Source: Polyangium jinanense
GTDB lineage: Bacteria; Myxococcota; Polyangia; Polyangiales; Polyangiaceae
Length of the DNA stretch: 64,000 nt
Assembly: GCF_028435365.1 (NCBI RefSeq)
Contig: NZ_JAGTJJ010000004.1
Span: 62,001-126,000 of the forward strand
Direction: 5' to 3'
In this document: positions 45,466 to 50,306 of the stretch, in pieces
Position numbering within the stretch: the stretch's first letter is position 1
Layout of the letters: each line of letters starts with the position of its first letter
Notes under the pieces: model-generated
What the model was told of the DNA's origin: nothing
Seen by the model: the letters and a program-made list of their open reading frames with translations, nothing else
Database searches by the model: none
Made by a program: the position numbers and the translations under genes

Positions 45466-45774
45466 TCAGCGTCTTCCGCCGCCGCCTCGACGACCCCCGC
45501 CACCCATGCGACCACGTCCGCCCCCCTTCCCCGCCGGCTTCTTTTGCGGCGGCGGCGCGGGCGGCGGCTCCTTCGTATACGCGATCAGCACGGCCCGCCC
45601 GCCCCTGAATTCGGGCGTGATCTGCGTGTATCCGTTGATCTTTCCGAACCCCTCCATGTCACCCTTGTGCTCGCCCATCCATTCGCTGAAGCGCTTCCAG
45701 AGGTCGCGCGCCGCCTCTTCAGGCAGCGCGACGCCGTCCACGAATGCGGCGAGGTTACCGGGCTCAGTCGTCAT
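45466..45774 (-). CDS. Small protein with Gly/Arg-rich (RGG-like) tail
   Basis: A 102-aa protein. Residues 1-66 form a compact domain (ALPEEAARDLWKRFSEWMGEHK; GFGKINGYTQITPEF; AVLIAYTKEP). Then comes a Pro-rich hinge, and the last 25 residues are GRGRMGGGGRRGGGG-like. Its ATG overlaps the TGA of the large kinase/sigma-54 regulator (ATGA, 45771-45774), so it is translationally coupled to it. RGG-type tails commonly bind RNA or drive condensation; that role is inferred. Convergent with the 169-aa gene, 15 bases apart. Confidence 0.7.
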   Translation of the reverse strand: MTTEPGNLAAFVDGVALPEEAARDLWKRFSEWMGEHKGDMEGFGKINGYTQITPEFRGGRAVLIAYTKEPPPAPPPQKKPAGKGGGRGRMGGGGRRGGGGRR

Positions 45775-48700: not shown

Positions 48701-50306
48701 GGAGGAGCGCGCGCGACGCGTGGAGGCAATACGAGGCTGCGATCTCGGCGTCGGCCGCGAGGGCTTCGTCGTGCACGCGTTCAAGCTCGGCGATCGCGCG
48801 CATGGCATCGCCGCGGCTCGTGAACAGGCGCGCGCGGGCGATCGCCACGGCCGGCGAGGGGTCGTCTTCGAGACGCGCGAGCACCTCGGCGGCCTCGTCG
48901 ACGTGGCCCCGATCGAGCAGCTTCATCGCGCGCTCGCGATCGGTGCCGCGCTCGTCCTCCTCGGCGAGGAGACGATCGACGTCAGCAGGGCTCGCGACGG
49001 GGGCGCGCGCGATCGCCTCGACGATCGCGCGGATCTTCCCGGGCAAATGGCCCGCGCGCCGCGCCACGTGATCCGCGACGACGTCGCCGAGCGAAGGGAT
49101 CGCCGAGCGCACGAGGTCACGCGCGCGCGACTCGTCGAGCGGCGGGACGGCGAAGAGCTCGAGCGTCGGGCCCGGCAGATTCGGCAGGCGCTCGGGGTCG
49201 AAGGTCACGACGACGCGGGCGCCGGCCTCGCGCAGCGACGCGAGGCGCGTCAGGTCGGATTTGGCGAGGCGATCGGCGTCATCCACGAGGACGATCGCAC
49301 CTTGCGGCTCTCCCGCCCCCACGAGCTCGAGATCCATCGCGTGCCCCGGATCGGGCGCGACCGCGGCCTCGACCCAGGCCACGCCGCGTCCCTTCACGCC
49401 GAGCCACCACGCGACGCGTCGAAGAAGCGTGCTCTTGCCCGCGCCCGGCAGACCCGTGACCACGATGCCGCCGCCCGAGCGCAACGCCTCGATCTGCGCG
49501 TCGAGCGCGGCGGCATGCTCGTCGAGACCGACGATCGGCCAGACGAGCGCGTCACGCGAGGCGAACGATTCGGGCATCGGCAGGGAGGCGGCGCGGCGGA
49601 TGGCGCTCGCGAGCTCGTCCGCGCTCGGGAAGCGGCTCGTCGGATCGGCCGCCGTGGCGCGACGCTCGACGTCTTCGAGCGCCGATACGACGGCCGGATC
49701 GAGCGCGGGCCCGACCGCCACGAGCGCCTCGCGCAGCGTGACGCCGAGCGCGTAGATCTCCACGCGCACGCCGAGCGGCGCGCCCGAGAGCAGCTCCGGG
49801 GCGGCGTACCGCGGCGTCATGCCCGACGGGAGCTCGCCGCCTTCGCGGAAGTTCGCCGCGAGCCCGAGGTCGACGAGCGTCGCCTTGCCGTCCGGCCCGA
49901 CGATGATGTTCGCGGGCTTCAGATCGCCGTGCAGCAAGAGCGCACGGTGGAGCCGCGTGAGCTGATCGGCGGCCTGCGCGATCGCGTCGAGGATCTCGAG
50001 GGGCTCATCGGGTTCGGCGAACCGCGCGGCCAGGCTCTTGCCGACCACGAGCTCCCGCACGAGGTACGCGCGGCGGCTGTTCGGCAGACGTCCGAAGCCG
50101 AGGATGCGCGGCACGCCGAGGCCTTCGAGGCCGGAGAGCGCGACGGCTTCGCGGACGAGGGCGAGCATTTCCGCCTCGTTCGCGCCCTCGGCGAGGACCT
50201 TCACGGCGACGGTCACGCCGGTGATGCGGTCTTTCGCGGACCAGACCTCTCCACCGCCGCCCTTGCCAAGGGGTGCGATAGGCTCGTATCGGGGCGGGAG
50301 CTGCAA
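45771..50306 (-). CDS. Ser/Thr kinase - NTPase - TPR - GAF - sigma-54 activator fusion
   Basis: A 1511-aa regulator starting at TTG. Residues 1-265: protein kinase with loop LGKGGGGEVW, Lys36, HGDLKPAN (Asp128; the usual Arg of HRD is Gly), DLG 146-148 and APE 169-171. About 265-450: an NTPase with P-loop GLPGAGKST (near 282) and VLVDDADRL. About 480-930: TPR-like helices. About 950-1120: GAF domain (ALLGAERGFVILKS). A short coiled coil follows. About 1180-1390: the sigma-54 AAA+ domain with GESGTGKE, GAFTGAD and GGTILLDEIGEM. The C-terminus is a Fis-type HTH (NRVKAARLVGLPRRTFYRRL). Expected to integrate signals and activate sigma-54 promoters. It has no receiver domain. Confidence 0.95.
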   Translation of the reverse strand: MQLPPRYEPIAPLGKGGGGEVWSAKDRITGVTVAVKVLAEGANEAEMLALVREAVALSGLEGLGVPRILGFGRLPNSRRAYLVRELVVGKSLAARFAEPDEPLEILDAIAQAADQLTRLHRALLLHGDLKPANIIVGPDGKATLVDLGLAANFREGGELPSGMTPRYAAPELLSGAPLGVRVEIYALGVTLREALVAVGPALDPAVVSALEDVERRATAADPTSRFPSADELASAIRRAASLPMPESFASRDALVWPIVGLDEHAAALDAQIEALRSGGGIVVTGLPGAGKSTLLRRVAWWLGVKGRGVAWVEAAVAPDPGHAMDLELVGAGEPQGAIVLVDDADRLAKSDLTRLASLREAGARVVVTFDPERLPNLPGPTLELFAVPPLDESRARDLVRSAIPSLGDVVADHVARRAGHLPGKIRAIVEAIARAPVASPADVDRLLAEEDERGTDRERAMKLLDRGHVDEAAEVLARLEDDPSPAVAIARARLFTSRGDAMRAIAELERVHDEALAADAEIAASYCLHASRALLRAGDYAGAETQAGAASERTGLSAAADDAAPLPRAEGRRALAMLAIAADALAVSGLAQSFSARHEDAKRTLARAVRLARAVGEPRILSVALGSLAFALQRDDQLDPAKAAYEEALTAAEQAGDAGSVATTRLNLAGIAKGQGDLAAALMHLEAAVDMGHRSGRVPTLRQALLNLANLELYLGRLARARVSIDQLALQRSELGLSQRAQLLSLEAEHAARSGDPAAAERLCRACAESWESLGRGVDAAEARLERVLIAPVTPSDDVHDLEAEIERASAALGGGSAHRPLLSLARGRVATLRGDERQAAAHCEEALEAARASGQKDFIARALEARAALHEDGGKPMLARRDREAALAVLEEIASVLPRDLREVFWDDPRRRALRALCMPSVHTPQQATTAASPNASPSSTLAAIRKAPTEERLARILEINRAIAGEVDLARLLEKVTDHAIALLGAERGFVILKSTQPRDEADPSAPLPFALSVHAFRGREGDDAHARFSQSIAERVVHVGEPIVTVSAREDDRMAGYVSVHQLMLQSIACVPIRARGGEVIGALYLETRLRPAMGFTDELPTLVALADQVAITIETARLVGENARRARELEKKSEELERANRDLEAARAELEELLGLRTEELKATKRDLRSARAVIKGHFGYEGLVGRSEAMRRVYALIDRVKDTDIPVLVIGESGTGKEVVARAIHNAGPRAKKPFVGINVGAIPEHLLESELFGHMRGAFTGADRDRRGLFREAEGGTILLDEIGEMPPKMQAGLLRVLQEKVVRPVGGAREEPVNTRVVAATHRDLVAMTAAGTFREDLLYRLHVVEVRVPPLRERIEDIPILIDHFLGIFAARYGRERRSVSRAALRRLMGHSWPGNVRQLENVLLNAWVLSDQAELEPEDFELPEARLAPRPPPPPESLREGPRSVSPEPSRKLSSLEAHKADERERILSALQASNWNRVKAARLVGLPRRTFYRRLKEYGIQ

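What the first reader, a model, noticed from the sequence alone, without database searches (positions are those of the whole stretch)
45771..50306. Single-chain Ser/Thr kinase - signalling NTPase - TPR - GAF - sigma-54 activator
Seen: kinase motifs (Lys36, HGDLKPAN, DLG, APE), a separate P-loop GLPGAGKST, TPR-like helices, a GAF region, an AAA+ domain with GAFTGA and a Fis-type HTH in one 1511-aa frame. Known: bacterial enhancer-binding proteins are normally controlled by receiver, GAF or PAS domains, and kinase-TPR-GAF proteins of the signal-transduction ATPase type usually lack the DNA-binding half. Inference: an eukaryotic-like kinase module may directly gate sigma-54 transcription, with self- or trans-phosphorylation replacing His-Asp relay. 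The kinase lacks the Arg of HRD, so it should be a non-RD type not needing activation-loop phosphorylation.
Basis: partly seen in the sequence, partly recalled or inferred. Interest (0 to 1): 0.7.

Follow-up and report, generated by a model that had tools for sequence, protein, structure and literature searches.

The report
Kinase-fused sigma-54 transcription activator
One long bacterial gene joins a eukaryote-like protein kinase, a sensor scaffold and a gene-switching machine in a single protein; the fusion is real and is kept across a group of soil bacteria, but whether the kinase works the switch has not been tested.

Summary
It is not a frame error: 11 of 13 genomes sampled in the family span kinase to activator. 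In 121 aligned rows (window protein twice plus 119 relatives) kinase catalytic residues are invariant (Lys36: 120, one gap), it is non-RD (HGD), no activation-loop Ser/Thr is conserved, and helix alphaG is missing. The gene adjoins a new OmpA/OmpX-like barrel gene in 14 of 18 loci. Best reading: a cytoplasmic one-component sensor whose kinase phosphorylates its own ring to set sigma-54 activation; linker threonines T1162/T1168, near-invariant here and rare in paralogs, are the candidate switch. Fusions are common in databases (119 of 120 best-listed hits to a paralog), yet ten paper searches found no described case. New variant of a known kind; kinase activity and gating are inferred, and sigma-54 promoter evidence is weak.

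The parts
45771..50306 (-). kinase-STAND-TPR-GAF-sigma54 activator gene, 1511 aa, TTG start
49587..50288 (-). Hanks-type Ser/Thr kinase domain (residues 7-240): K36, E53, HGD 126-128, K130, N133, DLG 146-148, APE 169-171; non-RD; helix alphaG absent
48957..49526 (-). STAND-like NTPase region (residues 261-450)
49428..49454 (-). P-loop GLPGAGKST (residues 285-293); Lys291 is Arg in 96 of 121 aligned rows
47532..48956 (-). TPR / MalT-like helical repeats (residues 451-925)
   Evidence: TPR_12 1e-6, TPR_MalT 1.6e-4, both under their cut-offs; TPR_12 over its cut-off in the orthologs P0078, P0083, P0040
46956..47399 (-). GAF domain (residues 970-1117)
46749..46931 (-). linker between GAF and AAA+ (residues 1126-1186) with family-specific T1162 and T1168, candidate phospho-acceptors
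   Evidence: acceptor role is inference
46017..46745 (-). AAA+ sigma-54 activator domain and lid (residues 1188-1430); GAFTGA at 46503-46520
45783..45893 (-). Fis-type HTH_8 DNA-binding domain (residues 1472-1508), RRTFYRRL in 120 of 121 rows
50333..51238 (-). 301-aa predicted OmpA/OmpX-like beta-barrel protein with signal peptide (by eye); same strand, 26 bp upstream of the kinase gene
51520..52563 (+). alpha/beta-hydrolase, divergently transcribed from the barrel gene; conserved neighbour
53257..53535 (+). 92-aa protein, conserved neighbour
54204..56258 (-). PrkA-type AAA+ serine kinase, conserved neighbour

Best explanation
A cytoplasmic one-component regulator. The TPR/STAND/GAF middle takes in a signal (a partner protein and/or small ligand); the N-terminal kinase, a non-RD Hanks kinase that should need no activation-loop phosphorylation, phosphorylates its own chain or a ring neighbour, most likely in the linker joining GAF to AAA+ (T1162/T1168), and so releases or locks the AAA+ ring that remodels sigma-54 RNA polymerase at promoters chosen by the Fis-type HTH. 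The likely output includes envelope genes, first the outer-membrane barrel encoded just upstream. Shown: domain order, intact catalytic and GAFTGA residues, selection, gene neighbourhood, a sigma-54 gene in relatives. Inferred: kinase activity, cis or intra-ring phosphorylation, acceptor residues, output genes, that the two genes form one operon.
For: Kinase catalytic residues in 121 of 121 aligned rows (K36 and E53 in 120, one row gapped); dN/dS 0.11-0.20 on the kinase in 4 Polyangium comparisons (0.37 in the distant fifth); no conserved S/T in residues 149-163; AAA+ Walker A and GAFTGA columns conserved (GAFTGA exact in 120 of 121); Sigma54_DBD found in 4 of 4 family genomes tried; T1162 in 120 and T1168 in 119 of 121 rows but in 19 and 4 of 109 alignable rows of the second set; barrel gene adjoining in 14 of 18 loci; upstream of the barrel gene in three lineages (L054, L055, L059) a -24/-12-like site scores 20.0, the background 99% level.
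Against: No biochemical data. In the window no convincing sigma-54 promoter: best 19.5 against a two-strand background 95% level of 20.0, and 18.0 upstream of the barrel gene against a one-strand 95% level of 19.5; 12 of 15 barrel upstream regions stay below 20.0. T1162/T1168 may be conserved for packing: neighbouring L1165 and L1172 are invariant too. Relatives show that the N-terminal domain can persist without standard motifs: 6 of 120 second-set rows lack K36, N133 or D146, and 41 have Ser at the DxG Gly; paralog L049 lacks APE and L050 has His for Asn133. Row counts are not corrected for descent.
Confidence: 0.42

Rival explanations
1. Two-output protein: the kinase phosphorylates other proteins (for example PrkA next door) while the GAF-AAA+-HTH half answers the same TPR/STAND input independently; phosphorylation does not gate the AAA+ ring.
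For: A PrkA kinase gene is a conserved neighbour; an active kinase needs no substrate in its own chain; the GAF domain alone could control the AAA+ domain, as in NorR (PMC2941729, start of abstract seen in the listings).
Against: Family-specific near-invariant linker threonines sit where gating would act. No substrate is known.
Confidence: 0.28
2. The kinase fold is mainly an ATP-dependent scaffold: nucleotide binding by the kinase and the degenerate STAND part sets conformation, and phosphotransfer is minor or absent.
For: STAND Walker-A Lys is lost in most aligned rows; alphaG, a substrate and dimer docking helix in other kinases (recalled), is missing; some relatives have lost Asn133, the DxG Gly or APE.
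Against: In the window's own family the catalytic residues are kept in every row that has the region, including Asn133, Asp146, Lys130 and APE, which a pure scaffold would not need.
Confidence: 0.18
3. Ordinary GAF-controlled activator with an old domain accretion: kinase, STAND and TPR have no specific role in transcription.
For: Domain shuffling of Hanks kinases is common (PMC1262709 and PMC2176072, passages).
Against: Purifying selection on the whole chain and invariant catalytic residues; the kinase-to-activator span in 11 of 13 family genomes.
Confidence: 0.08

Closest known systems
Bacterial enhancer-binding proteins (NtrC/NifA/NorR family; GAF members are type Ib of Francke et al. 2011, PMC3162934, section 6 part 1 of 2 read)
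   Same: GAF, AAA+ with GAFTGA, HTH_8 order; best PDB sequence match is a Nif-specific regulatory protein (9qq6); NCBIfam NifA, RtcR and NtrC models match below their cut-offs.
   Different: About 925 extra N-terminal residues with Hanks kinase, STAND and TPR.
PknK-type kinases (kinase plus MalT-like region in M. tuberculosis; PMC1262709 passages; the name PknK for it is recalled)
   Same: Kinase, then NTPase, then MalT-like TPR in one chain; JGI names several relatives PknK.
   Different: Here GAF, AAA+ and HTH follow, and the P-loop Lys is mostly Arg.
HstK / cbSTKIII dual kinases of cyanobacteria (PMC2176072 passages)
   Same: Hanks kinase and GAF in one chain with a second signalling output.
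   Different: The output is a histidine kinase there, a sigma-54 activator here.
FHA-domain enhancer-binding proteins of Myxococcus (recalled; no paper on them found)
   Same: Ser/Thr phosphorylation feeding sigma-54 control.
   Different: There a separate kinase and a phosphothreonine reader; here the kinase is in the same chain and the precomputed Pfam list of the identical protein P0002 has no FHA domain.
iSTAND, catalytically inactive STAND NTPases (PMC7159879 passages)
   Same: STAND fold with loss of a catalytic feature.
   Different: There part of MoxR-vWA conflict systems; here inside a regulator.

Membership tests
sigma-54 enhancer-binding protein | AAA+ domain with Walker A/B | tested here: met
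   GESGTGKE and LLDE
sigma-54 enhancer-binding protein | intact GAFTGA loop | tested here: met
   exact in 120 of 121 rows, the exception having one Gly to Ser change; in the second set exact in 99 of 120
sigma-54 enhancer-binding protein | Fis-type HTH | tested here: met
   HTH_8 8e-13
sigma-54 enhancer-binding protein | sigma-54 in the genome | tested here: inconclusive
   own assembly not held; Sigma54_DBD in 4 of 4 family genomes tried
sigma-54 enhancer-binding protein | activates a -24/-12 promoter | not testable with these tools
   no convincing site nearby in the window; sites at the background 99% level upstream of the barrel gene in 3 of 15 regions
Hanks-type Ser/Thr kinase | Lys, Glu, HxD, Asn, DxG, APE | tested here: met
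RD-type Hanks kinase with activation-loop control | Arg before the catalytic Asp; conserved activation-loop Ser/Thr | tested here: not met
   HGD in 121 of 121 rows; no conserved loop S/T
Hanks-type Ser/Thr kinase | complete C-lobe with helix alphaG (usual, not needed for the fold) | tested here: not met
   alphaF 180-201 runs to alphaH 204-217 in the model; about 25-residue jump against StkP
Hanks-type Ser/Thr kinase | phosphotransfer | not testable with these tools
   needs assay
STAND NTPase | Walker A Lys | tested here: inconclusive
   present in this protein (K291) but Arg in 96 of 121 rows
STAND NTPase | Walker B acidic pair | tested here: met
   D342 in 121 and D343 in 120 of 121
HstK/cbSTKIII dual kinase | HisKA/HATPase output | tested here: not met
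   output is Sigma54_activat plus HTH_8, residues 1188-1508; no PF00512 or PF02518 in the precomputed list of the identical protein P0002

The most novel reading that the evidence does not exclude
A single-polypeptide Ser/Thr-phosphorylation switch for sigma-54 transcription: the fused non-RD kinase phosphorylates T1162/T1168 in the GAF to AAA+ linker within the hexameric ring, replacing the His-Asp relay, and the outer-membrane barrel encoded just upstream is both cargo and feedback reporter of envelope state.
Probability: 0.22. Interest if true: 0.72.

Novelty: new variant of a known kind. Interest (0 to 1): 0.45.

Why it matters
Myxobacteria have very many Hanks kinases (508 putative in Sorangium cellulosum So0157-2, PMC3696898, passage) and sigma-54 activators, but to my knowledge (recalled) the wiring from Ser/Thr kinase to promoter is mostly unknown. 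A conserved single-chain case, with one constant partner gene and two candidate acceptor residues, would make that wiring testable in one purified protein.

Tried and rejected
Frame error or chimera: rejected.

Dead kinase: not supported for this family on sequence; open for some relatives.

Sigma-54 promoter near the kinase, barrel, hydrolase or prkA genes: scanned with a consensus recalled from memory. In the window nothing convincing. Elsewhere: 20.0 (background 99% level) upstream of the barrel gene in L054, L055 and L059, and 21.5 near prkA in L038 but pointing away from it. Left as weak, not as shown. The hydrolase promoter block conserved in five Polyangium sequences reads, by eye, more like a sigma-70 site.

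Wider census: most larger genome-search runs failed, so the spread outside the family rests on one phylum sample of 57 genomes: matches at E<=1e-150 in 6 of 7 family members and 1 of 50 others (G035, residues 488-1509 only). The paralog search shows fusions in MAGs named from other groups but gives no rate.

Binding motif TGGCACA: lowest p-value of 2139 7-mers upstream of the barrel gene (16 against 0.19 expected, in 6 of 11 lineages). The regions are related by descent, so the p-value is nominal. It is absent as such in the window (one TGGCACG, core at 51380-51385, minus strand). A strict palindrome of it occurs at 8 places in 4 of 6 genomes, 2 of them upstream of the barrel gene; the reversed-pattern control occurs at 3 places in 3 of 6. 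Of the other 6 places, 4 lie just upstream of predicted lipoprotein genes and 2 are unclear (by eye). The binder may be another regulator; not claimed as the site of this protein. An earlier count gave the window site as 51392-51386, which is wrong.

Papers: 10 searches were answered and none of the listings showed a described kinase-EBP fusion; most subscription papers are not held, and the 2008 myxobacterial kinome paper is not held.

Full report
What is there. The 1511-aa frame is on the minus strand, 50306 down to 45771, TTG start. Pfam gives kinase, STAND-like NTPase, TPR, GAF, sigma-54 AAA+ with lid, and Fis-type HTH in that order. The TPR match falls just under its curated cut-off in the window protein but is over it in the three orthologs P0078, P0083 and P0040. 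Codon third positions are 0.89 GC.

It is one gene. A protein search scored 7990 candidates and found 1169 at E<=0.001; the best 120 are listed. By the precomputed Pfam column, read by eye, all 120 listed rows carry PF00069 and PF00158, at 56-100% identity; P0095 lacks HTH_8, and P0063, P0076 and P0095 cover 66, 95 and 96% of the query, the rest 99-100%. P0002 is 100% identical, 1511 aa and without source, that is, the window's own protein. Named hits are Polyangium, Sorangium (including So ce56, P0078), Chondromyces and Minicystis. In one sample of G001's family 12 of 13 genomes match at E<=1e-100; 11 span kinase to activator (G003 aligns to residue 1459 there and to 1511; G004 in two pieces of one frame), G002 shows only residues 1014-1510 and G005 has none. 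G001 is Polyangium sp. 15x6, since L001 and L031 share contig length and coordinates.

The alignment used below has 121 rows: P0001-P0121, that is the window protein twice and 119 listed relatives; counts are not corrected for descent.

Kinase. H126, G127, D128, K130, N133, D146, L147, G148, A169, P170 and E171 are invariant in 121 of 121; K36 and E53 are present in 120, with a gap in one row. HGD makes it non-RD. Between DLG and Thr164 no Ser/Thr position is conserved: 24 of 121 rows have none there, 74 have one, and the commonest is Thr152 in 42. The model of residues 1-480 (mean pLDDT 86) runs from alphaF (180-201) straight to alphaH (204-217); its closest solved structure is the PknA kinase (E 1.6e-12, TM 0.70 by target), and the sequence alignment to StkP jumps about 25 residues at that point. 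The E183 to R225 stretch is 43 residues in 113 of 121. In the second set (P0122-P0241, 120 rows) it is long (54 or more) in 16 of 17 RD rows and 29 of 103 non-RD rows (Fisher p 2.6e-7, without correction for descent). So non-RD and loss of alphaG go together in this architecture.

Selection. dN/dS of the kinase is 0.11-0.20 in four Polyangium comparisons and 0.37 in the distant L035. The share of columns conserved in 98% of rows is 23% for the kinase, 7% STAND, 14% TPR, 36% GAF, 52% AAA+ and 49% HTH.

NTPase. Walker-A Lys291 is Lys in 24, Arg in 96, Ala in 1 of 121, while Walker B DD is kept (121 and 120 of 121); a midpoint-rooted tree of the GAF-AAA+ part reads Arg as the root state with 5 changes. 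The window's protein keeps the Lys, as do the Polyangium rows.

Output half. GESGTGKE is conserved (E1217 is Asp in 2 of 121); GAFTGA is exact in 120 of 121; RRTFYRRL in the HTH is 120 of 121 with one gap. Four of 4 family genomes tried have a Sigma54_DBD protein. G001 has three more frames holding both a kinase and an AAA+ match, among 150 of 580 candidates scored; their kinase motifs are partly non-standard. A search with one of them found 893 proteins and listed 120, of which 119 carry both domains (P0203 lacks PF00158), including MAGs named Acidobacteria and Sandaracinaceae. In that second set 96 of 120 have HGD, 17 HRD, 7 other; 6 lack K36, N133 or D146; 17 lack K130; 41 have Ser for the DxG Gly; GAFTGA is exact in 99.

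Linker. T1162 (120 of 121) and T1168 (119 of 121) are family-specific: 19 and 4 of the 109 second-set rows that could be aligned, 11 of 120 having been dropped for lack of the anchor motif. This is the one concrete hint for gating in cis; packing is the alternative.

Neighbourhood. The gene 26 bp upstream encodes a 301-aa protein with a signal peptide by eye and a predicted beta-barrel (mean pLDDT 74.8; residues 1-70 and 250-254 below 50) whose best matches are OmpA, OmpX and NspA (best E 2.4e-5, TM 0.61 by target; 14 matches at E<=0.001, autotransporter barrels among them); no Pfam or NCBIfam match. A relative of it adjoins the kinase gene in 14 of 18 loci with upstream DNA held (L031-L035, L052-L060; not found in L036, L038, L039, L051; L037 lacks upstream DNA and L001 duplicates L031). 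The distance from its stop to the conserved start region of the kinase frame is 14-68 bp in the 13 of 15 loci where a script located it. One operon is therefore likely but not shown. The hydrolase was detected in 15 of the 18 (not L053, L054, L057). PrkA is found in L031-L034, L035 (opposite orientation, other side), L038, L039, and in 5 of 7 extended family loci (L069, L070, L072, L074, L075; not in L071 or L073 within the DNA held).

Promoters. With a recalled -24/-12 consensus the window's own region gives nothing convincing; of 15 barrel upstream regions 3 (L054, L055, L059) reach 20.0, the background 99% level, at different distances from the start. This is weak support at best.

Mechanism and limits. 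See Best explanation. No call tests activity. My confidence that the kinase is catalytically competent is about 0.8 from sequence; that it gates the AAA+ ring in cis, about 0.4.

Known or new. Databases already hold over two hundred such protein clusters in these two capped lists alone, named 'sigma 54-interacting transcriptional regulator', 'protein kinase' or 'PknK'. In the passages seen of Krupa and Srinivasan 2005 (PMC1262709; the term sigma occurs 0 times in its main text) and in section 6, part 1 of 2, of the sigma-54 survey of Francke 2011 (PMC3162934) it is not mentioned; passages of PMC2887360, PMC3696898, PMC11032199 and PMC6213207 did not mention it either. The ten searches listed in Tried and rejected showed no paper on it; the library is incomplete. 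Statements on alphaG docking, FHA activators and non-RD behaviour are recalled.

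Noticed in passing
51380-51385 minus (core TGGCAC); L035, L052-L054, L057, L058 upstream of the barrel gene: Repeated TGGCACA/TGTGCCA motif, the most enriched 7-mer upstream of the barrel gene, in 6 of 11 lineages; its palindrome occurs at 8 places in 4 of 6 genomes against 3 for the reversed control, 4 of the 6 places away from the barrel gene being just upstream of predicted lipoprotein genes (by eye). 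A candidate envelope regulon; binder unknown.
   Followed up: partly
50333-51238 minus and relatives (P0242-P0361): An undescribed OmpA/OmpX-like barrel family with no Pfam or NCBIfam match, tied to the kinase-activator gene.
   Followed up: partly
L048, L049, L050: Three further kinase-activator fusions in the nearest held genome with non-standard kinase motifs: DLS for DLG, missing APE, Asn133 to His, one each.
   Followed up: partly
53242-53257 minus: The best -24/-12-like site of the whole window (score 21.0) lies about 90 bp upstream of the start of ORF 52641-53168 (minus), beside the conserved cluster; such a score is not unusual for 64 kb.
   Followed up: no
53257-53535 plus: 92-aa conserved protein beside an alpha/beta-hydrolase whose best NCBIfam match is a PHA synthase subunit far below cut-off; perhaps a storage-granule pair.
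   Followed up: no
L054:2-565: A second stretch matching the AAA+ domain (residues 1223-1410) lies just beyond the kinase-activator gene in genome G008.
   Followed up: no
43926-45272 minus: Uma2 nuclease-like domain plus an alanine-zipper-like tail downstream of the gene; its distance from the kinase gene varies between Polyangium strains.
   Followed up: no
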